Origin: Glaciimonas immobilis
GTDB taxonomy: Bacteria; Pseudomonadota; Gammaproteobacteria; Burkholderiales; Burkholderiaceae_D
Length of the DNA: 64,000 nt
Reading direction: 5' to 3'
Assembly (NCBI RefSeq): GCF_011947285.1
Contig: NZ_JAAOZT010000002.1
Span: 186,001 to 250,000, forward strand
A model generated the notes under the pieces. It saw nothing but the letters and a program-made list of their open reading frames with translations, was not told the DNA's origin and ran no database searches. Positions 4,123-55,951 of the stretch are shown piece by piece (position 1 is the stretch's first letter; each line of letters starts with the position of its first letter). The position numbers and the translations under genes were made by a program.

Positions 4123-4956
4123 TCAGCCACGAATATACGTCTTCCAGGCGAGCCATAATTTGCGAATCGGCGTCAAAGAGATGCGCTGATTCAAAACGTG
4201 AAAGCCGTCGCGTTCGATTTCGTTTAATAGTGCACGGTAAATTGCTGCCATCATCAGGCCGGGGCGCTGAGCGCGGCGGTCGGCTGGGGGCAGGAGGGCG
4301 AACGCTTCGTCATACATTTTCTGGGCACGTGCGACTTGAAAGCGCATGAGATTCTCAAAATTTTCGCTATGGCGCGCGTTCAATATATCGGCGGCCGTAA
4401 CGTGAAATTGCTGCAACTCATTCACTGGCAGGTAAATGCGGCCTTTACGCCCATCTTCGCCTACATCACGAATGATGTTTGTCAGTTGAAAAGCCAGGCC
4501 GAGTTTTTCTGCGAACTGCAACGTCTGTGGCTGCGTTAGTCCAAAAATACTGGCCGACAAGATGCCTACAACACTCGCGACGTGCCAGCAATAGTGTTTG
4601 AGGCCGGGATAGTCCAGGTAACGCGTTTGATTAAGATCCATCTCCATGCCGTCAATAATCGCCTGCAAATGCTCACTATTGAGCTCGTAGGTTGATAAAT
4701 GCGGCTGTAGCGCTTTGGTTACCGGATGCGTCGGGCTACCGCTTACCATCGCGGCAATTTCCTTGCGCCACCACATGAGCTTGGTGCGGGCCACCGCTTC
4801 ATCGGTGCAGTCATCGACGGTATCGTCAACTTCGCGACAAAATGCATAAAGCGCGGTGATTGCGCGCCGTCGTTCTACAGGCAAAAATAGAAAGCTGTAA
4901 TAAAAACTTGATCCGCTCTGTGCGGCTTTTTGCTGGCAGTAGTCGTCAGGAGACAT
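4123..4956 (-). CDS. hpnD: Presqualene diphosphate synthase HpnD
   Basis: A 277-residue trans-isoprenyl-diphosphate synthase-like enzyme that condenses two farnesyl diphosphates to presqualene diphosphate. Both Mg-binding Asp-rich regions are seen: DDTVDD at about 44-49, and NIIRDVGEDGRKGRIYLP, the classic second motif. The start is placed at 4956 because MSPDDYCQQKAAQSGSSFYYSFLFLP matches the family's usual beginning as I recall it; the frame is open 24 nt further to 4980. It is the middle gene of hpnC-hpnD-hpnE. The 242-bp gap from hpnC is longer than in compact hpn operons and holds no other gene. Confidence 0.9.
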   Translation of the reverse strand: MSPDDYCQQKAAQSGSSFYYSFLFLPVERRRAITALYAFCREVDDTVDDCTDEAVARTKLMWWRKEIAAMVSGSPTHPVTKALQPHLSTYELNSEHLQAIIDGMEMDLNQTRYLDYPGLKHYCWHVASVVGILSASIFGLTQPQTLQFAEKLGLAFQLTNIIRDVGEDGRKGRIYLPVNELQQFHVTAADILNARHSENFENLMRFQVARAQKMYDEAFALLPPADRRAQRPGLMMAAIYRALLNEIERDGFHVLNQRISLTPIRKLWLAWKTYIRG

Positions 4957-5198
4957 GAAATATCTTTGGTGTTGTTGCAACGGACAGCTTAAATAGTAAG
5001 CAACTTAAGTAATTGTGTTTAATGCAGCGCGCAAAGTTGCTATGCTAACCGAGTGCGGCGGGCAGGACAAATCGAATAAGCAAAAATCAATATTTGCCGC
5101 CAGAACTGACACCACTGAATTGCGACCTTGGGTGTGCTAGTTAGGATATGGCGCAAAGGACTGGGTTAGCCAGGAACTTGCAGCGCATTGATAATACG

Positions 5199-6011
5199 TT
5201 AGCGCATCCGCACAGCACGCCATGCTAAAACTAGCCAGTCCCATCTGCCTAATGTGGGCCGATGCCGGAAAACATCATAATTGACACTTTCTAAGCGTTC
5301 AAGAATGCGCAAACCGCCTTGCACCACCAGGCGCAGCTCCCAGCCAATTCGGCCCGGAAGGCGCACGGCGAGCGGCGCTGCATCCAGCATCATCTTACGG
5401 GTGCGCCCTACCTCGAAGCGCATCAAATTGCGCCATTTGGCGTCGCATCTGGACGTTGCAATGTGGGTCGCATCGACACCGAAGCGTTGCAAATCATCGA
5501 GCGGCAGATATATCCGGCTCTTTTCCCAGTCAATTGCTACATCTTGCCAAAAATTTATCAATTGTAACGCTGAGCAAATCGTATCCGAGTCGCGTATGTT
5601 CTGCGACGTTGCTGCGCCGTATAAATGCAACATGAGGCAACCTACGGGATTTGCTGAGCGCCGGCAATAATCAAGTAAATCCTCAAAGTTCTCATAACGC
5701 GTCGTCACAACGTCCTGCCTGAACGCCGACAACAAATCTCGAAAAGGCGCTATCGGCAATCCATATTGGTCGATTACCTTATGTAGGGGGTTAAATAAAG
5801 CGTCCACGGTAGTGTTGTGTTGTTCGATTCGATCCAGCGCCAATTCATAATCGTCCAAGGCGGACAACCGTTCTTGCGGACGCGCATCACCCTCGTCCGC
5901 CAGATCATCCGCACTGCGGGCGAACGCATAAATTGCCTGCACCGCTGGTCGTAGCCGGGCGGGCAGCAGCCAAGAGGCAACGGGAAAGTTCTCGTAATGA
6001 TTAACGGGCAT
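5199..6011 (-). CDS. hpnC: Squalene synthase-like HpnC
   Basis: A 270-residue isoprenoid synthase-fold protein. It has a first Asp-rich motif DDLADE (about 35-40) and a second motif LQLINFWQDVAIDWEKSRIYLP. HpnC converts presqualene diphosphate to hydroxysqualene. I choose the start at 6011 (MPVNHYENFPVASWLLPARLRP), since this gives a normal family length; the frame is open 171 nt further upstream to 6182 with a sequence unlike the family. No good ribosome-binding site is visible at 6011, so the start is moderately certain. It is the first gene of the squalene unit. Confidence 0.85.
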   Translation of the reverse strand: MPVNHYENFPVASWLLPARLRPAVQAIYAFARSADDLADEGDARPQERLSALDDYELALDRIEQHNTTVDALFNPLHKVIDQYGLPIAPFRDLLSAFRQDVVTTRYENFEDLLDYCRRSANPVGCLMLHLYGAATSQNIRDSDTICSALQLINFWQDVAIDWEKSRIYLPLDDLQRFGVDATHIATSRCDAKWRNLMRFEVGRTRKMMLDAAPLAVRLPGRIGWELRLVVQGGLRILERLESVNYDVFRHRPTLGRWDWLVLAWRAVRMR

Positions 6012-6389
6012 ATTGATAGCAATATCGATGCGTTGTTGCTTTAAATAACATTTCGGGTGGCGAGAAGGGTGGTTATGAGGTGGTGGCGGGAATCGCAACA
6101 CGATTCGGGATGGCACCCTCATCTGAAAACAGGGCAACATTTTCAGCCTCGAATAATAAATCAAAAAGGCATCACCCTGCATCTGTTTGGACCCGCTCGG
6201 CCCTTTTGTGCATGTGTATAGGGATGATACTTAGATTAAGTAATGAAATTACCCTCTTTATAGATGTCCACTTGCTTGCCAGCGCAGCCTTTGGACGATC
6301 TTATGACGAGGAATGAGATAAATTATGCGCTTGGCTTTATAATTGACTAGCGTAATGGGTTGCTCTTTGTTAGAATGCGGCTTCTTGAA
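6012..6389. other. Intergenic gap hpnC / tRNA-Leu
   Basis: This 378-bp spacer lies between divergent units. A -10-like TAGAAT at 6371-6376, 13 bp before the tRNA, probably drives tRNA-Leu, but no -35 at normal spacing is convincing (TTGACT at 6343-6348 is 22 bp away). I see no supportable coding region. Confidence 0.4.
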
Positions 6390-6474
6390 GCGGATATGGC
6401 GAAATTGGTAGACGCACTAGATTTAGGTTCTAGCGTTGAAAGACGTGGGGGTTCAAGTCCCTCTATCCGCACCA
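6390..6474 (+). tRNA. tRNA-Leu (anticodon TAG)
   Basis: A complete class II tRNA: acceptor stem GCGGATA pairs with the 3' TATCCGC, and discriminator A and CCA are encoded. The D-arm is GGCGAAATTGGTAGACGC, the anticodon stem-loop CTAGA-TTTAGGT-TCTAG carries TAG, a long variable arm is present, and the T-arm contains GGTTCAAGTCC. It reads CUN leucine codons. Confidence 0.95.
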
Positions 6475-6566
6475 AAACATGCAGCAAAAATAATCGTAGG
6501 GCTTTTTTCTCTAATCACCACTGCCTCGGCAATGCGTGATTGATCAAGTACTGCGATGTCAGAACA

Positions 6567-6588
6567 GCCCTCTCATGAGGGCTTTTTT
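6567..6588 (+). terminator. Rho-independent terminator after tRNA-Leu
   Basis: A 6-bp stem GCCCTC/GAGGGC (6567-6572 with 6577-6582) with a TCAT loop is followed by six T. It lies about 95 bp after tRNA-Leu. The rest of the 6475-6819 gap contains only the creA leader, with GAGGTAACC just before the creA ATG. Confidence 0.75.
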
Positions 6589-6819
6589 GTGCCCGGTACT
6601 TACCCTCCTGCGTCGCCGTTGCCAGCGACTCTGCGTTTCTTTACCTCTCTTTTAATCGATAATTCATGGTCGCGACTTTATGCGCCGGATGGCGATTAAA
6701 TTCTACTCACGCGGCTTTGATCTTTTCTATAAAATTGTTAATGGATAGGACTGATCGATGGACCGTTTCAGTCGCCAGACTTGCACTTCTTGTATCGATT
6801 TTAAAAAAGCGAGGTAACC

Positions 6820-7320
6820 ATGAAACCAATAACTGCTGCGTTAATTGCTGGCGGTATTGCGGCTTTGCTAAACCTCGGCATAGCAAGCACCGCATCCGCC
6901 GGGTCTGAAGAAGTGGGTGAAGTGAGTACTGCGTTTCGTTGGCTTGGGCACAATGATCGGGTTGTTGTGGAAGCGTATGATGATCCGAAGGTGCAAGGCG
7001 TTACCTGTTATGTCTCGCGGGCACGCACCGGGGGAGTAAAAGGCACGGTCGGCCTCGCGGAGGACCGTGCAGAAGCGTCAATTGCTTGTCGCCAGGTGGG
7101 AGCGAGTGTGCGTTTTCTCAACAAGTTACCGTTGCAAGAGGATGTATTTACGGAGCGAATGTCGATTCTATTTAAGCGCCTTCACATAGTGCGTATAGTG
7201 GACCCCAAGCGCAATACATTGATCTATCTGACATACTCGGATAAATTAGTGGATGGAAGTCCTCAAAACAGTGTCACAGCTGTTCCCGTGCCAGCAGGTA
7301 CGCCCATTTTGATAAAATAG
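6820..7320 (+). CDS. creA: CreA family periplasmic protein
   Basis: A 166-residue exported protein with an N-terminal signal peptide (MKPITAALIAGGIAALLNLG..., Ala-rich, probable cleavage near ASA-GS at about residue 28). The body matches the CreA family: EVGEVSTAFRWLGHND, VVVEAYDDPKVQGVTCYVSRA, and GLAEDRAEASIACRQVG. CreA is widespread in proteobacteria; despite the name (catabolite regulation) its biochemical role is not established. A good Shine-Dalgarno, GAGG, lies 8 nt before the ATG. It stands alone between tRNA-Leu and tig. Confidence 0.85.
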   Translation: MKPITAALIAGGIAALLNLGIASTASAGSEEVGEVSTAFRWLGHNDRVVVEAYDDPKVQGVTCYVSRARTGGVKGTVGLAEDRAEASIACRQVGASVRFLNKLPLQEDVFTERMSILFKRLHIVRIVDPKRNTLIYLTYSDKLVDGSPQNSVTAVPVPAGTPILIK

Positions 7321-46341: not shown

Positions 46342-48075
46342 CTATTGTTGTGCTGGAATCGGTTGTGCTGGTTGCAGGGTAGTTGAATCGCGCGGCACCA
46401 TCCCTTGCAGTCTGCGCTGACTATCGAGCATGTCTTGATCCCAGCTATCCTCGCCCTGTACGATCGTTGGTTTCAACAAGATGACCAGTTCACTTTTTTG
46501 CGCTACCCGGCTATTACTGCGGAATAAATTACCTAATACAGGAACGTCTGCGGCTCCCGGTACTTGCGAACGGTCAGCCGACGAAGACTGCCGCATGAGT
46601 CCGCCAATGGCAATGATGCGTCCGTCTTGCCCGCGAACGACACTATCGGTTTCGGAAATCGCGCTGGAGGCCAACGGTAGGCTTAATGTACCACCGCTTG
46701 CGCCTAAATTAATTACTTTGTTGACGGTAGTTACCTGGCTCACGGAGGGATGAATATGGAGCGTGATATTACCGACGGCGTCAATTTGCGGAGTCACGTC
46801 TAGTGATACCCCGGAAAAGAACGGGTGGACGTCAACCGTTGTGACCGGTAGCGACGTTGTATTGCCAGAACTAACACCTTGCGACGTCGTTAATTTGGTT
46901 ACAAAAAATTCATCTGTGCCCACCTTTAATACCGCTTTTTGATTATTCATCGTGGCGATACGAGGGCTGGACAGCACATGCACGGTACCTTGTGAGTCTA
47001 AAAATGAAATCAACGCTGCAAAATTACTATTCTGAAAAGCCAAACCAAACAGCGACCCGGCAGCCGCGCTGGCTGCGCCCAGTGTGCTTCCGCTAACTGC
47101 GGTGACCGCGTTGTTGCCCCCGCTTGTCAGGGTCGCTCCTGCGCTAGGTGACAGAGTGGTTCCGGGTGCGACATAACCGAGGGAAGTGCGGCTACCTTTT
47201 GCTGCAAAGGCAGCCCAATTTACGCCTGACTGAAAATTGTCATTTAACGAGACTTCGATAATTTTTGCTTCTAAAATAACTTGGCGATCCACTGATAATT
47301 GGGTCGCCTTCAAAAAAGTAGAGACATTCCGTAACTCATCCGACATAGCGCGAATCACTACCACACCGGACTGCGGGCTGATGACAACGCTGCGGCCATC
47401 TTTGTCGCCAATGATGGCGTTCAAAGACGTTTTGAGTTCTGCCCAAAAATCGTTATTCGAAGTCGTACTGATCTTGCTGGTGTCGACCGAATGGCTGGAT
47501 GTTCCCGATTGTGATCCTGATGTGTTGCCGCCACCCGAACTACCACCGGATACCCCATCGATTACCGAGCCAGAAATAACGCGAATGTCGGAGGTACCCT
47601 TGCGGCTGCCACTCAGATAATTGACCTGGAAAATACTGGTTTGCAGGCTCAGAGGCTTGACGTAAATACGGTTGCCTTGCACCTTGTACTCGTAGCCATA
47701 CAGCTCGCGGATGGCATCCAGCGCTTCAAATAGTGTGACGTTTTTAAGGTTGGCTGAAATAGTGCCAGTCACATCAGGGTGGACCAGCATGTTGTATTGT
47801 GTGCCTGCGACCAGTGCCATAAAAAATTGGCTCGCCGGTACATTATTGAAGGACAAATTAAATCGTTCTTCGAGCGGCTGACGGGTCTTAGGCATTTCAA
47901 TCTGAAGTGGCGGCAAAAGTGAAGCGAAAACCGCCTCCTGCTGCGCTCGCTTGGCATTATTCTCTACCGCACTGTCCATTTCGGTATTGATAAGATTGTA
48001 CGTTTCACGTTTCGGCGCAGGTAAAGTGCATCCCGCTAATCCTATTATCAAGACAACTAAAAGGGTCTTCTTCAT
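46342..48075 (-). CDS. mshL: Outer-membrane secretin MshL
   Basis: A 577-residue secretin lipoprotein with lipobox LIIGLAGC (Cys16). An STN-type domain (FNLSFNNVPASQFFMALVAGTQYNMLVHPDVTGTISANLKNVTLFEALDAI) is followed by a Gly/Ser-rich loop, a NolW-type domain (VVISPQSGVVVIRAMSDELRNVSTFL) and the secretin beta-barrel core (VLSSPRIATMNNQKAVLKVG, VDVHPFFSGVSLDVTPQID, RSQVPGAADVPVLGNLF). It forms the channel for the pilus. Confidence 0.93.
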   Translation of the reverse strand: MKKTLLVVLIIGLAGCTLPAPKRETYNLINTEMDSAVENNAKRAQQEAVFASLLPPLQIEMPKTRQPLEERFNLSFNNVPASQFFMALVAGTQYNMLVHPDVTGTISANLKNVTLFEALDAIRELYGYEYKVQGNRIYVKPLSLQTSIFQVNYLSGSRKGTSDIRVISGSVIDGVSGGSSGGGNTSGSQSGTSSHSVDTSKISTTSNNDFWAELKTSLNAIIGDKDGRSVVISPQSGVVVIRAMSDELRNVSTFLKATQLSVDRQVILEAKIIEVSLNDNFQSGVNWAAFAAKGSRTSLGYVAPGTTLSPSAGATLTSGGNNAVTAVSGSTLGAASAAAGSLFGLAFQNSNFAALISFLDSQGTVHVLSSPRIATMNNQKAVLKVGTDEFFVTKLTTSQGVSSGNTTSLPVTTVDVHPFFSGVSLDVTPQIDAVGNITLHIHPSVSQVTTVNKVINLGASGGTLSLPLASSAISETDSVVRGQDGRIIAIGGLMRQSSSADRSQVPGAADVPVLGNLFRSNSRVAQKSELVILLKPTIVQGEDSWDQDMLDSQRRLQGMVPRDSTTLQPAQPIPAQQ

Positions 48076-48181
48076 ACTCTTTTCTAAAGCCTGTTGATGT
48101 AGATTGTTGCGATTTGCGCAAAATTATTGACGCAAAATCGGTCGAGCGGCAATGTGCTCTGTTTTCTTCGGTATGCTTTGC

Positions 48182-48586
48182 TTAAGGTACTGTCTTAATT
48201 TGTACATTTTGCGGTGGTAATTTTTCGGTATTTTTATTGATAGACTGTTTTTTTATATCAGGGAAAAGTTTGAGTAACAGCTGCGCTTTTCCGTTTTGTA
48301 AAATGGCTTCCGTCTCACTAATGCGAACCAGATGAAATTCACCGAATTTTTGGTTTAACTTTACCGTCTGGCCGCTAATAATCGCGATTTTGCTATTGTT
48401 TGAAATAAGTACCGATTGCAAAACGGGACCGGCCGTTACCACAGGATCGCCCGGCGCTGCATTGATTACGTCTGGAGGCCGCGTGGGATCGGACATTATT
48501 TGCGCGTCTGCAAACGATGTCCACGCTGTGCAAAAAACGCCTGCCGCAGCCATAGTCAAGGCGGTATTTTTGATGAATGTTGTCAT
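48182..48586 (-). CDS. mshK: MshK-like protein
   Basis: A 134-residue exported protein: signal peptide MTTFIKNTALTMAAAGVFCTAWTSFADA, then DPTRPPDVINA, a stretch typical of MshK/PilP-like proteins, then a small beta-rich domain (LQSVLISNNSKIAIISGQTVKLNQKFGEFHLVRISETEAILQNG). The start at 48586 overlaps the mshJ stop (ATGA); an alternative ATG exists at 48598. Probably links the inner-membrane complex to the secretin. It is followed by a 106-bp gap before mshL. Confidence 0.85.
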   Translation of the reverse strand: MTTFIKNTALTMAAAGVFCTAWTSFADAQIMSDPTRPPDVINAAPGDPVVTAGPVLQSVLISNNSKIAIISGQTVKLNQKFGEFHLVRISETEAILQNGKAQLLLKLFPDIKKQSINKNTEKLPPQNVQIKTVP

Positions 48587-49305
48587 AGATTCAACCATTT
48601 TTCATCGAGGCTTAAAGTGAATAAAGTGAGATTGAATGTGGCCTCGGGATAAGTATTTGTTTGCATGGTCGCTTTGCCCCAAAAAATTTGCCAGGGCAGG
48701 GCTTCCAGCGTTGACATGTATCGCACCATATCGGGATAGGTCCCTTGTACGACTATTTCTACGCTGTGCTTATAAACGCCGCCGCTGGTCTGTGTAGCGG
48801 ACGCTGGCGCTACCGCTTTGGTAACCTCCGCGACGCGGGTTTTATCCGCGGGATCTTTGACTTCATTCGACCCAGCAGGGGTCAAGCTGGTGACAGGCAA
48901 AGTATTGAGAGAGATTAAACGTAACGCTCCATTACGTTTCAAAATATCTTGCAAAAGTGAGGTCATGTTCTCAGGTTTCACCAGAACATTGTTTAATCCT
49001 AGCAATTCAGAACGGAGCTGTAGCGATTGCTCCTGCAATTTTTTTAATAACGCATTATCCGAAATATTTGGATCAAAAGCCCGGGCTCTTACTTTCTCCT
49101 GAATGGTAGTCTGCATGAGCGCAATTTTTGCCTGATTTGTCTGAATGTGCAGGGACATTTTCTTTTGTCTATCAAATTGCGGCCCAAATAAAAATGCATT
49201 AAGCAACAATATAATAATGAAAAGCACACCGATAAAGATCATGGCGCGTTCGCGCAGACTCTTGCCATCAATTTTTAGGATCACCTGTTGTAGATATTGT
49301 TTCAT
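48583..49305 (-). CDS. mshJ: MshJ-like protein (PilO family)
   Basis: A 240-residue bitopic inner-membrane protein: cytoplasmic tail, one helix (MIFIGVLFIIILLLNAFLFGP), a periplasmic coiled coil (QAKIALMQTTIQEKVRARAFDPN), and a PilO-like ferredoxin fold (HSVEIVVQGTYPDMVRYMSTLEALPWQIFWGKATMQTNTYPEATFNLTLFTLS). It belongs to the inner-membrane alignment complex and overlaps mshI2 by 4 bp. Confidence 0.87.
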   Translation of the reverse strand: MKQYLQQVILKIDGKSLRERAMIFIGVLFIIILLLNAFLFGPQFDRQKKMSLHIQTNQAKIALMQTTIQEKVRARAFDPNISDNALLKKLQEQSLQLRSELLGLNNVLVKPENMTSLLQDILKRNGALRLISLNTLPVTSLTPAGSNEVKDPADKTRVAEVTKAVAPASATQTSGGVYKHSVEIVVQGTYPDMVRYMSTLEALPWQIFWGKATMQTNTYPEATFNLTLFTLSLDEKWLNL

Positions 49306-50072
49306 TGCCGCTTTACTCCGCCTGTTTCCGCAGGTTTCTTTATAGCGCTTCCATCGGGGGGAGCGGAAGCGCCAGGCGTGGTCATACTCGGCGAGACGGT
49401 AGGAGGGGCGGCGACCGGCGTGATGGCTTTTTCTTTCGATAGGCCCGATGACCGAAGATCAAACGCAAAATAGGGTGCGACTGACGGTGCATTCGCCAAA
49501 CCCGTGGTATCGCCCGCTATCTTTGAGGGGATATGCATTTCGAGTGTGGAAAAAGTTTTTCCTTGCATGATGGGTTCGTTTTTAAGCTTGTCGATATATG
49601 TCGGGACCAATTCCGGACGTAACGCCAGACCGCGCAAATCCATTTCCGCACCTGCGCCAACAATACTAAAACCGCTCAGCCACACCCCATCCACGATTTG
49701 ACGCGAAAATGCCAGCAGGTAGGCCGAGTATCCCAGCGTATTACCAAAATCACCGCGGTTAAGCGTCTCCGACGCCTGTTGCAAGAACTTGATCTCAAGA
49801 TTTGCTTTAGTGATGCGATCCGCCAATAGTTGATCTTTTTGATTGGGTACGTATTGCGCACTAACCTTGGTCAGCTCAGCCTGCACCACGTTTACTTGTG
49901 CTGTTGAGGTTACTTCGTCGTTGCGAATACTAGAGAATTCGTAATCTGAAAACGTTGAAATACAGAGTGCGCCGAGAAGTATCAAACCTAGAGCCTGCAC
50001 CATCGCTACCGCAGAAAAATATTTTTTCTGCTTTAAAAATAGCGGATTAAAAAGATTAATCTGTTGGCTCAT
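49302..50072 (-). CDS. MshI2-like protein (PilN family)
   Basis: A 256-residue bitopic protein beginning MSQQINLFNPLFLKQKKYFSA, the PilN/MshI2-type peptide that binds the PilM-like partner. A transmembrane helix (about 21-43), a coiled coil, and a PilN-like domain (GDFGNTLGYSAYLLAFSRQIVDGVWLSGFSIVGAGAEMDLRGLALRPELVPTYIDKLKNEPIMQGKTF) follow. The C-terminus is low-complexity Pro/Ala. It overlaps mshI by 4 bp and mshJ by 4 bp. Confidence 0.85.
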   Translation of the reverse strand: MSQQINLFNPLFLKQKKYFSAVAMVQALGLILLGALCISTFSDYEFSSIRNDEVTSTAQVNVVQAELTKVSAQYVPNQKDQLLADRITKANLEIKFLQQASETLNRGDFGNTLGYSAYLLAFSRQIVDGVWLSGFSIVGAGAEMDLRGLALRPELVPTYIDKLKNEPIMQGKTFSTLEMHIPSKIAGDTTGLANAPSVAPYFAFDLRSSGLSKEKAITPVAAPPTVSPSMTTPGASAPPDGSAIKKPAETGGVKRQ

Positions 50073-51019
50073 AACTTTTTCTCATCAATGCGCAATGCCG
50101 CACCGAGTGTTATGAAATAACGCTGTTGATTTTCAGTATCGTTAAGGGTCGGCACTTTGGAAAAATCCAGAATGGTATCCAGATTTAATATCTCCACCGG
50201 GATGTACAAGTTGGTCGAGAGATAATTTTCAAGCGCAGCGCCTTCAGCTCCCATGGGTGAAAGTACCAGCTTTGATAGTGAAAGAGAGTGATATTGCCGC
50301 TCAAAATGATCCAGTGACCGCTGCAAATCCAGCGTGATCCGTTCATGAATCAGCTCAAGCTGGCTTTTGTCAGCGCGCTGTAAGTGCGTGATTGTCGTAT
50401 CCATTCGTCGTGAAAGGTAAAGCTCGCCGCCGAACGTAATGGTAACTAACCCCCCCTCAGTATTAAAAGATAGCAATGCGACAGCATGGCCTTCCGGCTC
50501 AATAAGGGCGGCGATGTTGCGTTGTGCCATCTCTGGAATATCAATAACGCGCAACGCAATATTGGCACCCTCGAACAGTTGCTGGCGTTGTTCAATTAAC
50601 TTATTGCGAACGACCACCGCAAACAATGCATTGTTATGCAACGGTCCACTTTTATCGAGCGGGATAGCCAGTACGTCTATGGTAGCGTCATCGACATGAT
50701 AATCCAGCATGTCTTTCAGACGCCATCGGACTGCTTTTTTAAGTTCTTCGGGCGGTACATTTAGCGGGTCTATCGAGAGTAATTGATATTCTCCGATATT
50801 CAGCAAATGGAGGCATTGATAACGATGGAGGCTTAAGTCTTGCGCTGCTTTATGTAAAGTACTTTGAAGTGCCGTTTTATCACAGCGATATAAGGAAATT
50901 AATTCCACCCGGGGTTTGCTTGTCCCGTTTTTCTTCATATGCACTACATGAATACCATCTTCGTGACAACCGATCGCCATCCTTCCGAGTCTTATTTTTT
51001 TAAAATTGAATAAATTCAC
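50069..51019 (-). CDS. mshI: MshI-like protein (PilM family)
   Basis: A 316-residue cytoplasmic actin-like pilus protein, first gene of the msh cluster. Features include GCHEDGIHVVHMKKNG, VPPEELKKAVRWRLKDMLDYHVDDATIDVLAIP, VIDIPEMAQRNIAALI, and LSFNTEGGLVTITFGGELYLSRR. Initiation is at GTG 51019, preceded by AAAGG at good spacing. The strong overlaps among mshI, mshI2, mshJ and mshK indicate one tightly coupled operon. Confidence 0.87.
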   Translation of the reverse strand: MNLFNFKKIRLGRMAIGCHEDGIHVVHMKKNGTSKPRVELISLYRCDKTALQSTLHKAAQDLSLHRYQCLHLLNIGEYQLLSIDPLNVPPEELKKAVRWRLKDMLDYHVDDATIDVLAIPLDKSGPLHNNALFAVVVRNKLIEQRQQLFEGANIALRVIDIPEMAQRNIAALIEPEGHAVALLSFNTEGGLVTITFGGELYLSRRMDTTITHLQRADKSQLELIHERITLDLQRSLDHFERQYHSLSLSKLVLSPMGAEGAALENYLSTNLYIPVEILNLDTILDFSKVPTLNDTENQQRYFITLGAALRIDEKKL

Positions 51020-53109: not shown

Positions 53110-53138
53110 AGGTCATCAAACCGACACATATCTGTCAT
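53110..53138 (+). promoter_or_regulatory. Pho box (PhoB-binding site) before olsB-plcP-GT operon
   Basis: CCGACAC-ATAT-CTGTCAT (53121-53138) has the 7-4-7 layout of a Pho box, with a perfect second half-site. One period (11 bp) further upstream, AGGTCAT (53110-53116) matches five of seven, so there are three in-phase half-sites. A -10-like AGTAAT (53147-53152) lies 8 bp downstream, close to the spacing in PhoB-activated promoters. The olsB ATG is 57 bp after the box. Confidence 0.65.
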
Positions 53139-53195
53139 TTTCTTGAAGTAATCCGTCGTTAATCTGGCCTTGTCAAAATTTGAGAAGGACGATGC

Positions 53196-53963
53196 ATGCG
53201 ATTACTGACCGTTCCCCGCGACGCCAACCCGGTTGCTCCCAAATTAACCGTTAGCATCGCCACCACGCAGGAAGAAGTCCGCGAAGTGCAACGTTTGCGC
53301 TACAAGGTTTTTATTGAGGCATTTAATTTGTCTGCATTGGTCAATCCAGATGGTCTCGATATTGATGCGTTTGACGCTTACTGTGATCATTTGATTGTTC
53401 GCGATAACAAGACTTTACGCGTGGTGGGGACCTACCGGGTGATGAGTCCACACGCTTCGCGAAGGATGGGATCGTACTATTCTGAAAAGGAGTTCGATCT
53501 TGGCCGCCTGGATCATTTGCGCGGCCGTCTTGCGGAAGCGGGGCGCGCCTGCATTCATCCCGACTATCGCAGCGGCAGCGTCATCATGCTTTTGTGGGCT
53601 GGATTAGCAGCATACATGCGGCGTGAGCGCTGCGACTATTTAATGGGATGTGTCAGCGTGAGCCTTGCCGACGGCGGTCACAATGCGGCGGCTCTGTACC
53701 ACGCGCTAGATCAGGAAAGTCTCTCACCTGCCGAATATCGTGTCAGGCCACATACGCCGTTCCCGGTGCACGAGCGAGAGGCCGGACACGTGCCGGTTAT
53801 GCCACCCCTTTTAAAGGGATATCTGCGGAGTGGTGCGTGGGTGTGCGGCGATCCGGCCTGGGATCCCGACTTTCATTCTGCGGACTTTTTTCTGCTTTTA
53901 CCTCTAGCCAGACTTGACAGTCGTTATGCGCGTCATTATCGAACAGAATCGAGTCCTCCATGA
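53196..53963 (+). CDS. olsB: OlsB-like ornithine N-acyltransferase
   Basis: A 255-residue GNAT/hemolysin-like acyltransferase of the OlsB family, which joins 3-hydroxyacyl-ACP to ornithine to give lyso-ornithine lipid. Visible: VQRLRYKVFIEAFNL, IDAFDAYCDHLIVRD, LRVVGTYRVMSP, GSYYSEKEFDL, LAEAGRACIHPDYRSGSVIMLLWAGLAAYMRRERCDYLMGCVSVS. AGAAGGA precedes the ATG. It is the first gene of a three-gene operon behind a Pho box. No OlsA acyltransferase is present in the window, so the second acylation must be encoded elsewhere. A general acyl-/acetyltransferase with another substrate is the main alternative. Confidence 0.78.
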   Translation: MRLLTVPRDANPVAPKLTVSIATTQEEVREVQRLRYKVFIEAFNLSALVNPDGLDIDAFDAYCDHLIVRDNKTLRVVGTYRVMSPHASRRMGSYYSEKEFDLGRLDHLRGRLAEAGRACIHPDYRSGSVIMLLWAGLAAYMRRERCDYLMGCVSVSLADGGHNAAALYHALDQESLSPAEYRVRPHTPFPVHEREAGHVPVMPPLLKGYLRSGAWVCGDPAWDPDFHSADFFLLLPLARLDSRYARHYRTESSPP

Positions 53964-54820
53964 AGCCAGATGAGCGTTTTTTGAACAGCGGCTTTGCTGG
54001 CGCGGGAACATCTGTCAAACGCGAACCGATCCGCTTCCGCACTATCTGGATTTCTGACGTACATCTCGGCACGACCGGCTGTCAGGCAGCGCGCCTGCTT
54101 GAGTTTTTACGCGCAACTGAGTCGGACACGCTGTATCTGGTGGGCGATATTATCGACGGCTGGCAATTGAAGCGGCGCTGGTATTGGGATCAGACCCATA
54201 ACAACGTCGTACAGACGGTATTGAAAAAAGCCCGTAAGGGGACTGAAGTTATATTTGTTCCGGGTAATCACGACGAGGCGATTCGACAATTCATCGATCT
54301 TGATTTTGGCGGTATCAAGATACGCGATGAATTGATTCACACGACAGCAGAGGGCAAGCGCTTTCTGGTGCTGCATGGAGATCGCTTCGATGGCGTCATC
54401 TCTTGCGCAAAATGGTTGGCTTATGTCGGTGACAGTTTATATACGGTGATTCTGAAATTTAATCAGTGGTTCAATGGGTGGCGTGCGCGTGCTGGCTTGC
54501 CGTATTGGTCTTTGTCGCAATATTTAAAGCTTAAAGTAAAAAATGCGGTAAATTATATTTCCTCATTTGAGAATGCTTTAGCAGCAGAAGCGGCAAAGAA
54601 AGGGCTCGATGGCGTCATTTGCGGACATATCCATAAGCCCGAGATGCGCAACATCAACGGGATTATTTATTGCAACGATGGCGATTGGGTCGAGAGCCTG
54701 ACCGCTTTGGTGGAGGACGCTAGCGGTGCCCTGCGCATAGTCACCTGGCAAGAAATCGTGGGGCAGAAGAACACGATAGTGACTACTAAAATAGGAGAAC
54801 TATGCGCATCGCCCTTATAA
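53960..54820 (+). CDS. Calcineurin-like metallophosphoesterase, PlcP-like (LpxH-related)
   Basis: A 286-residue cytoplasmic metallophosphoesterase. The metal ligands are all present: DVHLG, GDIIDGW, GNHDEA, LHGDRFDG and GHIHKPE, ending in YCNDGDWVESLTALVE. Automatic annotation would call this UDP-2,3-diacylglucosamine hydrolase, but the length and the stretch WQLKRRWYWDQTHNNVVQ are, as I recall, shared with PlcP, the phosphate-starvation phospholipase C of rhizobia that makes diacylglycerol from phospholipid. Its start overlaps the olsB stop (ATGA). With a glycosyltransferase next to it, a lipid-remodelling role is the better inference. Confidence 0.75.
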   Translation: MKPDERFLNSGFAGAGTSVKREPIRFRTIWISDVHLGTTGCQAARLLEFLRATESDTLYLVGDIIDGWQLKRRWYWDQTHNNVVQTVLKKARKGTEVIFVPGNHDEAIRQFIDLDFGGIKIRDELIHTTAEGKRFLVLHGDRFDGVISCAKWLAYVGDSLYTVILKFNQWFNGWRARAGLPYWSLSQYLKLKVKNAVNYISSFENALAAEAAKKGLDGVICGHIHKPEMRNINGIIYCNDGDWVESLTALVEDASGALRIVTWQEIVGQKNTIVTTKIGELCASPL

Positions 54821-55839
54821 CGGATGCCTCTTTGTCCCAGATTAACGGGGTCGTCAATACGTTGCGGGAAACCTGTCGCTGTTTGCGCAACGCCGGTCAC
54901 GAGGTATTGTTGGTCACTCCGGACGGTACCGCTACATTTGCTTGTCCCACTTATCCGGAAATTCGACTCGCCTACAAACCTTATGCGCGTGTCGCAACCG
55001 CGTTGCGCGATTTTGAGGCGGATTGCATACACATATCGACCGAAGGCCCGATGGGGCTGGCCGCCCGGCGCTTTTGTTTGCGTCACGGTATCGGGTTTAC
55101 CACTGCGTACCACACACGTTTTCCTGAGTATCTGAGTGCCCGCTCAATGCTACCGTTGGCACTTACCTACCGCTGGCTGCGCTGGTTTCATGGTCCATCG
55201 AAAGCCGTGATGGTGCCTACGCCTCACGTATTAGAAGCGCTTAAGAAGCGTGGATTTCGTCATTTGGTGCTATGGGGGCGTGGGGTTGACACCGAGAGGT
55301 TCCATCCGACTGAACAGGATCGTTCCTGCATCAAAGGACCTTTGTTTTTGTACGTAGGAAGGGTGGCCGTTGAGAAAAACATTGCGGCATTTTTAAATGC
55401 CAAGCTGCCGGGTAGCAAATGGATAGTGGGCGATGGCCCGTTGCGCGAAGAACTACAGCAAGGTTATCCGGATGCGCATTTTTTGGGTAGCAAATCCCAT
55501 GAGGAACTAAGCGCTTATTACAATTGTGCGGACGTTCTGGTGTTCCCTAGTCATACCGACACGTTCGGTTTAGTCATGCTGGAGGCGATGGCCTGTGGGG
55601 TACCGGTAGCAGCATATCCGGTATGCGGTCCGATTGATGTGGTGGCGGACGGTTACTCAGGAAGTCTGGAACTTGATCTTGCGCGCGCTTGCATGAATGC
55701 GCTGCGATTGGATCGCGACAAGATCCGCGCGCATGCGCTGACCTATTCATGGGAACGCGCGACCCAGCAGTTTTTGCAAAGCCTGTATCGCATTGAACCG
55801 ATAAAAGCAAATCGCTGGGTCCGTTCATCTATCGCATGA
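54802..55839 (+). CDS. GT4-family glycosyltransferase (possible diacylglycerol glycosyltransferase)
   Basis: A 345-residue GT-B fold glycosyltransferase of family 4. The N-terminal acceptor half begins MRIALITDASLSQINGVVNTLRET, with FTTAYHTRFPEYLSAR and GPSKAVMVPTPHVLEAL. The donor half has LFLYVGRVAVEKNIAAFL, KWIVGDGPLREEL, and SHTDTFGLVMLEAMACGVPVAAYPVCGP (family Glu motif). Databases often call such proteins alpha-mannosyltransferase. The start has AGGAGA 5 nt upstream and overlaps the phosphoesterase gene by 19 bp. In PlcP-linked operons a glycosyltransferase (Agt) puts sugar on diacylglycerol; I infer that role here. Confidence 0.75.
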   Translation: MRIALITDASLSQINGVVNTLRETCRCLRNAGHEVLLVTPDGTATFACPTYPEIRLAYKPYARVATALRDFEADCIHISTEGPMGLAARRFCLRHGIGFTTAYHTRFPEYLSARSMLPLALTYRWLRWFHGPSKAVMVPTPHVLEALKKRGFRHLVLWGRGVDTERFHPTEQDRSCIKGPLFLYVGRVAVEKNIAAFLNAKLPGSKWIVGDGPLREELQQGYPDAHFLGSKSHEELSAYYNCADVLVFPSHTDTFGLVMLEAMACGVPVAAYPVCGPIDVVADGYSGSLELDLARACMNALRLDRDKIRAHALTYSWERATQQFLQSLYRIEPIKANRWVRSSIA

Positions 55840-55850
55840 AATTTTGGAAG

Positions 55851-55883
55851 CATAGCGCGAACCCTCGCACGGTTCGCGCTATG
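55851..55883. terminator. Perfect 13-bp hairpin after the lipid operon
   Basis: CATAGCGCGAACC and its exact complement flank a 7-nt loop, 11 bp after the glycosyltransferase stop. There is no U-run, so it may stop transcription weakly, protect the mRNA 3' end, or serve the convergent aldo/keto reductase gene. Confidence 0.6.
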
Positions 55884-55951
55884 CAGACTTCTCGCCAAAG
55901 ATCAGTTGGGATCAACTCCACAGCGTCCCTTTCCGGCAAAAAGAGGCGGGT

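What the first reader, a model, noticed from the sequence alone, without database searches (positions are those of the whole stretch)
53110..55839. Likely phosphate-starvation lipid-remodelling operon: olsB-like, PlcP-like and GT4 genes behind a Pho box
Seen: three genes with overlapping or near-touching ends, and a 7-4-7 Pho-box match CCGACAC-ATAT-CTGTCAT with a third in-phase half-site AGGTCAT upstream and a -10-like hexamer downstream. Known: OlsB makes lyso-ornithine lipid; PlcP-type metallophosphoesterases turn phospholipid into diacylglycerol under phosphate limitation; Agt-type enzymes glycosylate it. Inference: one operon yields both classes of phosphorus-free lipid. Standard annotation (acetyltransferase, LpxH-like hydrolase, mannosyltransferase) would hide this.
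Basis: partly seen in the sequence, partly recalled or inferred. Interest (0 to 1): 0.85.

Follow-up and report, generated by a model that had tools for sequence, protein, structure and literature searches.

The report
Phosphate-starvation membrane lipid swap operon
A bacterium of the genus Glaciimonas carries one set of three genes, probably switched on by phosphate shortage, that most likely strips phosphorus from its membrane fats and replaces them with two kinds of phosphorus-free fat; the parts are known, the joint arrangement looks new, and public databases tend to mislabel the key enzyme.

Summary
In detail: olsB-plcP-agt (53196-55839) with overlapping ends, behind in-phase PhoB half-sites. 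In the window alone the Pho box is not above chance (4 matches, 3.94 expected). Across 65 family loci with olsB next to plcP (window included), however, 51 have a triple half-site of 15/21 or better upstream, against 9 of 2,591 control segments.

The phosphoesterase groups with S. meliloti and P. aeruginosa PlcP and apart from LpxH (100/100). A true LpxH lies elsewhere in the genome (264.7 bits), and so does an OlsA candidate. The GT4 is 49% identical to the glycosyltransferase beside P. aeruginosa plcP. The window belongs to Glaciimonas.

Among 98 plcP loci from 195 family genomes, olsB is directly upstream in 65. Directly downstream lies agt in 57 and an MGDG-synthase-like GT28 in 17. One locus has btaA upstream instead of olsB. 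This exchange of lipid genes around plcP supports lipid remodelling.

The enzymes and Pho control are known. The joint operon is a new variant, not seen in my 10 searches of an open library. The orphan 'LpxH2' of the lipid A literature appears to be PlcP. No expression or lipid data exist here.

The parts
53110..53149 (+). PhoB-type box: in-phase half-sites AGGTCAT 53110-53116, CCGACAC 53121-53127, CTGTCAT 53132-53138 and a weaker fourth, TTGAAGT 53143-53149
   Evidence: sequence; conserved in relatives; not above chance as a single match
53160..53165 (+). -10-like hexamer TAATCT, 10 bases after the fourth half-site
   Evidence: sequence; the aligned positions (consensus TAcgCT) are conserved in 37 non-redundant promoters
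53185..53189 (+). likely ribosome binding site AAGGA for olsB
   Evidence: sequence; inference
53196..53963 (+). olsB-like gene, N-acyltransferase (255 aa)
   Evidence: PF13444 118.5 bits; best NCBIfam hits are the two OlsB equivalogs, 157.5 and 152.2 bits, below their cut-offs of 320 and 350
53960..54820 (+). plcP-like gene, metallophosphoesterase (286 aa)
   Evidence: 46% to S. meliloti PlcP, 55% to P. aeruginosa PlcP, 22% to own LpxH; tree; D33, H35, D63, N103-H104, H139, H223, H225 invariant in 28 sequences
54802..55839 (+). agt-like GT4 glycosyltransferase gene (345 aa)
   Evidence: PF13439, PF13692, PF00534; 49% over 340 positions to the GT encoded beside P. aeruginosa plcP
55850..55884 (.). 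14-bp hairpin after agt, between convergent genes; possible two-way terminator (no T run on the + side)
   Evidence: fold of 55838-55905 -28.8 kcal/mol, z -5.44; not listed by the terminator scan

Best explanation
A PhoB-controlled membrane-lipid-remodelling operon of Glaciimonas. When phosphate is short, PhoB~P binds the in-phase half-sites and starts one mRNA for three translationally coupled genes. PlcP hydrolyses the phosphate head group from membrane phospholipids, freeing phosphate and leaving diacylglycerol. The GT4 (Agt) glycosylates that diacylglycerol to a glycolipid, most likely monoglycosyl-DAG. OlsB N-acylates ornithine to lyso-ornithine lipid, which an unlinked, probably housekeeping OlsA O-acylates to ornithine lipid. 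Net effect: phospholipid is replaced by two phosphorus-free lipid classes at once. Shown here: gene identities by homology, order and overlaps, the conserved Pho-type promoter, a separate LpxH and OlsA candidate, and conserved linkage with exchange of functionally equivalent genes. Inferred: single transcript, catalysis, substrates, PhoB binding and phosphate response.
For: PlcP and not LpxH: tree 100/100; GNHD in 50 of 50 PlcP-type rows and GNRD in 12 of 12 LpxH rows kept in that tree; LpxH model 39.1 bits against cut-off 190.35, while the own LpxH scores 264.7; 46% identity to S. meliloti PlcP and 55% to P. aeruginosa PlcP. Agt: 49% to the GT beside P. aeruginosa plcP. OlsB: best NCBIfam hits are OlsB. 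OlsB and the own OlsA candidate, as tblastn queries, hit genes under 0.4 kb apart in 11 of the 16 plasmid-collection records that appear in both printed lists, and genes about 15 kb apart in 4 Sinorhizobium records. OlsA candidate: 132.7 bits to an OlsA model against 102.8 to the PlsC-type model; own PlsC 54.4 and 92.2. Co-occurrence in 195 genomes: 59 of the 60 agt genomes and 94 of the 143 olsB genomes have plcP. Linkage: olsB directly upstream of plcP in 65 of 98 loci. Swaps: GT4 in 57, GT28 in 17, btaA in place of olsB in one family locus. Phosphate genes close by: of 62 named olsB-plcP loci, 46 have a ppx, pstS, sixA or ppk relative in the stretch held. Pho box conservation.
Against: No expression, binding or lipid data. 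The Pho box is not significant in this window by itself. OlsB, the OlsA candidate and the GT score below the NCBIfam equivalog cut-offs, and the best PhoB hit is below its cut-off. 12 of 65 olsB promoters have no triple site at p<=0.05: 9 are of one genus code, g26 (Herbaspirillum), one has a broken olsB frame so the wrong stretch was scored, one (G. soli) has the box further upstream, one is at p 0.055. Two of five Glaciimonas genomes (G014 = G. soli, G054) lack agt at E<=1e-30, so this glycolipid step is not universal even in the genus; all five have an unlinked GT28. One review states that ornithine lipids are not tightly phosphate-regulated in Burkholderia sp. (PMC11631085, passage).
Confidence: 0.9

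Rival explanations
1. The phosphoesterase is an LpxH (lipid A) enzyme and the cluster is an outer-membrane/LPS locus, as automatic annotation says.
For: In 22 of 29 plasmid records a feature is listed under the match, and all 22 are named UDP-2,3-diacylglucosamine diphosphatase; the nearest solved folds are LpxH.
Against: Separate clade at 100/100; H for R in block 3; true LpxH elsewhere in the genome; the P. aeruginosa paralogue 'LpxH2' does not complement an lpxH mutant (PMC3087551, PMC6286764, passages). TM-scores to the LpxH entries are only 0.46-0.57 (model of moderate confidence).
Confidence: 0.03
2. Same operon logic, but the aminolipid is not ornithine lipid: the GNAT acylates another amino acid (lysine, glutamine or glycine).
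For: OlsB relatives GluB and GlsB exist (PMC11631085, passages); Acinetobacter OlsB also makes lysine lipids (PMC11828411, passages); the score is below the OlsB equivalog cut-offs.
Against: The two best models are both ornithine-specific OlsB. Paraburkholderia xenovorans, a betaproteobacterium with a predicted Pho box before olsB, was reported to replace phospholipids by ornithine lipids at low phosphate (PMC7814305, 'data not shown' there; passages).
Confidence: 0.12
3. PlcP and OlsB are the functional core; the GT4 does not use PlcP-derived DAG but another acceptor, and DAG is recycled or goes to the unlinked GT28.
For: 14 of 65 olsB-plcP loci have no agt or GT28 next to plcP; the own genome has an unlinked GT28 followed by a membrane-protein gene; the best NCBIfam hit of the GT4 is N-acetylglucosaminyl phosphatidylglycerol synthase, 69.8 bits against cut-off 480.
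Against: agt occurs almost only with plcP (59 of 60 genomes); GT4 and GT28, both with diacylglycerol-glycosyltransferase relatives, occupy the same slot; 49% identity to the P. aeruginosa GT beside plcP.
Confidence: 0.12
4. The Pho box is a chance match and the operon is constitutive or controlled otherwise.
For: Single-window match not above chance; the second half-site matches 4 of 7.
Against: Conserved triple half-site at a nearly fixed distance with low-information flank; control rate 9 of 2,591 against 51 of 65; found in 5 of 5 Glaciimonas genomes, in G. soli displaced to 267 nt upstream.
Confidence: 0.05

Closest known systems
plcP-agt operon of Pseudomonas aeruginosa (PA3219-PA3218), Pelagibacter and Methylosinus (PMC8528852, PMC4796936, PMC9239053)
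   Same: Same two enzymes in the same order, Pho box in front; 55% (PlcP) and 49% (GT) identity to the P. aeruginosa pair of NZ_CP137508.1 read here
   Different: No olsB in these operons in the passages I read; here olsB is the first gene and shares the promoter
Pho-box-preceded olsB of Burkholderia s.l. and Acinetobacter (PMC7814305, PMC11828411)
   Same: olsB behind a predicted Pho box; olsA unlinked in Acinetobacter
   Different: The passages read do not put olsB in one operon with plcP or a glycosyltransferase
Pseudomonas BIRD-1 PHO-dependent PlcP, OlsA, OlsB (PMC5082522)
   Same: Same functional set, PHO-dependent proteins
   Different: plcP and olsAB have distant locus tags; here one gene cluster
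plcP-btaAB clusters, e.g. Phaeobacter sp. MED193 (PMC4796936, type 1)
   Same: plcP linked to genes for a phosphorus-free lipid
   Different: Betaine lipid instead of ornithine lipid and glycolipid; btaA does stand in olsB's place in one relative here (L101)
LpxH2, orphan LpxH paralogue (PMC3087551, PMC6286764, PMC5016852)
   Same: P. aeruginosa LpxH2 is 270 aa and S. meliloti LpxH2 281 aa in PMC3087551, the lengths of the two PlcPs used here; GNH instead of GNR; aromatic-rich insertion
   Different: Those papers (passages) treat its function as unknown or as possibly lipid A related; here it is PlcP

Membership tests
PlcP (phosphate-starvation phospholipase C) | Groups with characterised PlcP and apart from LpxH | tested here: met
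   62-row tree, split 100/100; 8 of 70 candidate rows dropped by my motif/ORF filter beforehand
PlcP (phosphate-starvation phospholipase C) | Metallophosphoesterase metal ligands with GNH in block 3 | tested here: met
   D33, H35, D63, N103-H104, H139, H223, H225 invariant in 28 sequences
PlcP (phosphate-starvation phospholipase C) | Hydrolysis of phospholipid to diacylglycerol | not testable with these tools
   needs enzyme assay
PlcP (phosphate-starvation phospholipase C) | Pho-regulated | tested here: inconclusive
   conserved Pho-type box; no expression data
LpxH | GNRD block and score above the LpxH cut-off | tested here: not met
   GNHD; 39.1 bits against 190.35
OlsB | Acetyltransf_5 (PF13444) domain and best match to OlsB models | tested here: met
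   118.5 bits; best NCBIfam hits are OlsB
OlsB | NCBIfam OlsB equivalog cut-off | tested here: not met
   157.5 and 152.2 bits against 320 and 350; from their names I read these models as Brucella- and Rhodobacter-type, so a betaproteobacterial OlsB may fall short
OlsB | A partner OlsA in the genome | tested here: met
   L006:1345-2118, OlsA model above PlsC-type model, but below the OlsA cut-off of 300
OlsB | Acylates ornithine | not testable with these tools
   needs lipid analysis
Agt (GT4 diacylglycerol glycosyltransferase) | Homology to Agt and linkage to plcP | tested here: met
   49% over 340 positions; adjacent in 57 of 98 plcP loci
Agt (GT4 diacylglycerol glycosyltransferase) | Makes MGDG or GADG | not testable with these tools
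   needs expression and lipid analysis
Pho regulon member | Pho box conserved at promoter distance | tested here: met
Pho regulon member | PhoB binding and phosphate response | not testable with these tools
   needs experiment

The most novel reading that the evidence does not exclude
In Oxalobacteraceae PlcP is the fixed hub of a modular, Pho-switched 'phosphorus-free membrane' operon. An aminolipid module (olsB, rarely btaA) sits upstream and a glycolipid module downstream. The glycolipid module is either GT4 Agt or a GT28 MGDG-synthase-like enzyme with an undescribed membrane-type partner protein, and it has apparently been exchanged repeatedly. One promoter thus sets the amino- to glycolipid output, and GT28 plus its partner would be a new diacylglycerol-glycosylating pair in Gram-negative lipid remodelling.
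Probability: 0.55. Interest if true: 0.62.

Novelty: new variant of a known kind. Interest (0 to 1): 0.5.

Why it matters
If true, bacteria of the Oxalobacteraceae (named loci: Collimonas, Herbaspirillum, Herminiimonas, Undibacterium sensu lato, Oxalicibacterium, Glaciimonas) can swap membrane phospholipids for two phosphorus-free lipid classes from a single phosphate-responsive promoter. Three adjacent genes give an easy genetic handle to ask how cells balance cationic aminolipid against neutral glycolipid. It also points to a broad naming problem: PlcP is labelled as the lipid A enzyme in the annotations seen here (22 of 22 listed features), and the orphan 'LpxH2' of the lipid A literature, described as of unknown function, appears to be PlcP. 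The exchange of GT4 for GT28 flags an uncharacterised membrane protein as a likely glycolipid-synthesis partner.

Tried and rejected
LpxH reading: rejected. Pho box from the window alone: not significant, so I relied on relatives. Own pstS-ppk gap was read instead: triple sites of 14-15/21 and the pair GTGTCACAAAAATGTCAT (no significance computed). Second Acetyltransf_5 match of the genome (C6, model positions 2-59 of 102, 24.5 bits) considered as a second OlsB: by my reading a LuxI-type synthase near a LuxR-type gene. PlsC as OlsA: rejected by model scores; the fourth PF01553 protein (631 aa) was not scanned. Betaine lipid in the own genome: no DUF3419 match. Structure model: mean pLDDT 74.8, insertion mostly 50-70; nearest folds LpxH with low TM, not decisive. 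Microvirga plcP-olsB neighbours on a plasmid: the fetched record had no annotation there, not pursued.

Rows dropped: 8 of 70 from the tree (four LpxH candidates, three PlcP-type, one sub-threshold); two extra copies from G194 and two longer duplicates of G054 and G014 from the counts; 1 of 98 loci (L068) from the tree; 1 of 98 promoters (contig end). For olsB adjacency 4 of 97 loci were too close to a contig end and left unlabelled. Two of the 57 agt neighbours are partial hits (L066 at a contig end, L089). Of 66 order genomes outside the family with PlcP I looked at the neighbourhood of 27.
Full report
OBSERVATION. The three open frames and their overlaps are as described: olsB 53196-53963, plcP 53960-54820, agt 54802-55839. 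The half-sites and the -10-like hexamer are at the stated places. I find a fourth in-phase half-site-like stretch (53143-53149) followed by exactly 10 bases and TAATCT (53160-53165).

CHANCE. As a lone match to CTGTCATNNNNCTGTCAT with up to three mismatches, the box is one of 4 in the window where 3.94 are expected. It is therefore not evidence by itself, although its triple-site score of 16/21 ties for best in the window.

WHOSE GENOME. The genome is a 4.9 Mb assembly; the window lies at G000:C12:186001-250000. A same-genus genome, G014, carries the match at position 89474 of a 1,277,470-base contig. That contig length and position are those of NZ_WINI01000001.1, Glaciimonas soli GS1. The window is therefore Glaciimonas, NCBI family Oxalobacteraceae (inference). 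The sampled group 'family f1' is a code; its NCBI family is not given.

CONSERVED PROMOTER. Of 98 family loci (one per genome with plcP, window included), 97 had enough upstream sequence. Among the 65 with olsB next to plcP, 53 have a triple half-site at p<=0.05 against shuffles of their own 200-nt upstream, 47 at the smallest p possible. Among the 32 without adjacent olsB, 19 have one before plcP at p<=0.05. In 37 non-redundant olsB promoters the consensus is TGTCAt-naAA-cnGACAt-nnan-CTGTCAT-ttTg-ctGAAGt-AaTCnntngt-TAcgCT. Half-sites 1-3 average 1.46 bits per column, spacers 0.69, upstream flank 0.31. These rows were picked by triple-site score (53 rows at 14/21 or more), which favours the half-site columns; the fourth site (1.22 bits) and the -10 columns were not used in picking. 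A score of 15/21 or more occurs in 51 of 65 olsB promoters, 11 of 32 plcP promoters, and 9 of 2,591 other 200-nt segments of the same loci. All five Glaciimonas genomes have the box: four at 86 nt with 15-16/21, and G. soli with 15/21 displaced to 267 nt.

Against: One more is the displaced G. soli box, one (L031) has a broken olsB frame so that the wrong stretch was scored, and one (L109) is at p 0.055.

PLCP, NOT LPXH. The window protein is 46% identical to the protein of S. meliloti CP090106.1 that lies within 3 kb of LuxR-type and AHL-synthase genes, the recalled setting of the characterised PlcP, SMc00171. It is 55% identical to the P. aeruginosa protein that precedes a glycosyltransferase gene, and 22% to the genome's own LpxH. 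The two references are 47% identical to each other; the paper gives 46% (PMC8528852, passage). A 62-row tree separates 50 PlcP-type from 12 LpxH rows with 100/100; 8 of 70 candidate rows had been dropped by my motif/ORF filter, which accepts GNHD or GNRD. All 50 carry GNHD and all 12 GNRD. The genome has a true LpxH at C12:100176-100835 (264.7 bits; window protein 39.1; cut-off 190.35). AlphaFold2 gives the shared core and a long two-helix insertion (mean pLDDT 74.8). The nearest solved folds are LpxH at TM 0.46-0.57. The stretch between the HGD and GHIH motifs is 16% F/W/Y, against 6% in the own LpxH, in line with the aromatic-rich insertion of P. aeruginosa LpxH2 (PMC5016852, passage).

LPXH2 IS PLCP. 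The lipid A literature has an orphan paralogue, LpxH2. PMC3087551 gives 270 aa for P. aeruginosa and 281 aa for S. meliloti, H instead of R in block 3, and no complementation of lpxH by the P. aeruginosa gene (passages). PMC6286764 says its function remains unknown (passage). The PlcPs read here are 270 and 281 aa. One search for papers with both words found none. The identity is my inference from length, motif and phylogeny; I did not see LpxH2 accession numbers.

OLSB AND OLSA. OlsB carries PF13444 (118.5 bits). Its best NCBIfam models are the two OlsB equivalogs, at about half their cut-offs. The genome has four PF01553 proteins. I scanned three: the C29:112119 protein scores 132.7 and 114.2 bits to the OlsA models (cut-off 300) and 102.8 to the PlsC-type model, while the C29:320417 protein scores 92.2 to the PlsC-type model and 54.4 at best to OlsA; the third, C12:33993, is neither clearly. 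The OlsA candidate overlaps the end of an upstream gene (dihydroorotase by my reading) by 4 bases, so it is probably housekeeping. Acinetobacter olsA is likewise unlinked and not phosphate-induced (PMC11828411, passages). tblastn in the plasmid collection with OlsB and with the OlsA candidate (25 of 28 and 25 of 27 records printed) gives 16 records in both lists. The two hits lie under 0.4 kb apart in 11, about 15 kb apart in 4 Sinorhizobium records (by recall the S. meliloti olsB and olsA), and far apart in 1. The PlsC control hits other places in the 25 of 58 records printed.

AGT. The GT4 is 49% identical over 340 positions to the GT after P. aeruginosa plcP. In P. aeruginosa the agt1 (PA3218) mutant lost MGDG (PMC8528852, passage); that the plasmid-record protein equals PA3218 is inferred from its place. 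The sugar used here is not known.

NEIGHBOURHOODS. In 195 family genomes PlcP is found in 98 (E<=1e-20), OlsB in 143 (E<=1e-15), Agt in 60 (E<=1e-30); 59 of 60 agt genomes and 94 of 143 olsB genomes have plcP. In the 98 loci olsB is directly upstream of plcP in 65. Directly downstream (within 350 nt) is agt in 57, else a GT28 in 17, and neither in 24. Layouts: olsB-plcP-agt 44, olsB-plcP-GT28 7, olsB-plcP 14, plcP-agt with olsB further downstream 7, others 26. The GT28 type protein matches Pfam MGDG_synth (92 bits) and, below cut-off, diglucosyl-DAG synthase (219 of 500 bits). On a 97-row PlcP tree the GT type needs 11 changes and olsB adjacency 5; starred branches force no more than 4 and 2 per label.

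One locus (G060, L101) has btaA (DUF3419, 340 bits) upstream. Among the 80 named loci, 62 have olsB directly upstream: 48 are of NCBI family Oxalobacteraceae, 4 Burkholderiaceae (as titled), 10 unplaced. In 37 of the 62 a ppk relative and in 13 a pstS relative lies in the stretch held; of 14 titled Undibacterium, 9 have pstS at 60% identity or more and 13 ppk. In 27 loci from other families of the order, none has olsB adjacent and 17 have agt; 69 of 150 order genomes have PlcP. Joining olsB to plcP thus looks mainly like an Oxalobacteraceae trait.

LIMITS OF THE GLYCOLIPID STEP. G014 and G054, both Glaciimonas, lack agt. A GT28 is found in 15 of 17 genomes tested, among them all five Glaciimonas; in the own genome it is unlinked at C31:42806 with a membrane-protein gene after it. 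The own genome has no DUF3419 match, but 10 of the 17 do, mostly Undibacterium-type g32, so a betaine lipid may play a part there.

LITERATURE. Seen as passages: PMC4796936 (also one whole section, on plcP context), PMC8528852, PMC9239053, PMC5082522, PMC11631085, PMC7814305, PMC11828411, PMC3087551, PMC6286764, PMC5016852; others only as listings with abstract starts. Known: plcP-agt operons with Pho box; Pho boxes before olsB in Burkholderia s.l. (21 of 43 genomes with one matrix; all 43 with a second, 'data not shown'; PMC7814305); PHO-dependent PlcP, OlsA and OlsB in Pseudomonas at separate loci. An olsB-plcP-agt operon was not seen in these passages nor in the listings of my 10 searches; most subscription papers are not in that library.

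VERDICT. A well-supported prediction of a Pho-controlled lipid-remodelling operon; new as an arrangement, known as a kind. 

Noticed in passing
L279:3280-4473 and 4355-5044 (own genome C31, about 42.8-44.5 kb); also L042, L101, L049, L075 and others: A GT28 MGDG-synthase-like gene is followed on the same strand by a gene for a membrane-type protein (by eye; roughly 155-195 aa, stretch like LPTWRIExHWLLDIFWGGRAMTGYHAW) with no Pfam or NCBIfam hit for the two members scanned. 22 of 22 family loci with GT28 have it, 19 of 22 named ones (one at a contig end, two weak GT28 hits); none has it without GT28. A likely unnamed partner.
   Followed up: partly
L113, L114 and lipid A literature: The orphan LpxH paralogue 'LpxH2' appears to be PlcP (lengths, motif, clade); no paper in the library holds both names.
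   Followed up: partly
L133 (G001), about 4959-6937 on -: olsB-agt pair in a genome without a plcP match at E<=1e-20; an 18/21 triple Pho half-site overlaps the start of the longest olsB frame, so probably precedes the real start.
   Followed up: no
L101:72-2374 (G060): btaA (DUF3419) and an Acetyltransf_6-like gene (below cut-off) precede plcP-GT28 in place of olsB.
   Followed up: no
L015 / L112 (G014, Glaciimonas soli): Pho box kept but 267 nt from olsB, so about 180 bases seem to have come between box and gene; agt is absent.
   Followed up: no
G194: C2:6756, C17:2802722, C17:3290733: Three equally scoring plcP-agt copies in one genome, two of them some 488 kb apart on one contig; recent duplication or assembly artefact.
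   Followed up: no
L114 (NZ_CP137508.1 and two more P. aeruginosa plasmid records): plcP on three plasmid records of P. aeruginosa; in the one read it is followed by a glycosyltransferase gene among chromosome-like neighbours.
   Followed up: no
L113 (CP090106.1): A 3.7 Mb record titled S. meliloti pSymB that carries olsB-, olsA- and plcP-like genes, by recall chromosomal; possibly mislabelled.
   Followed up: no
window 46342-51019: Genes on - that look like a type IV (MSHA-type) pilus biogenesis set with a secretin; read by eye, not searched.
   Followed up: no
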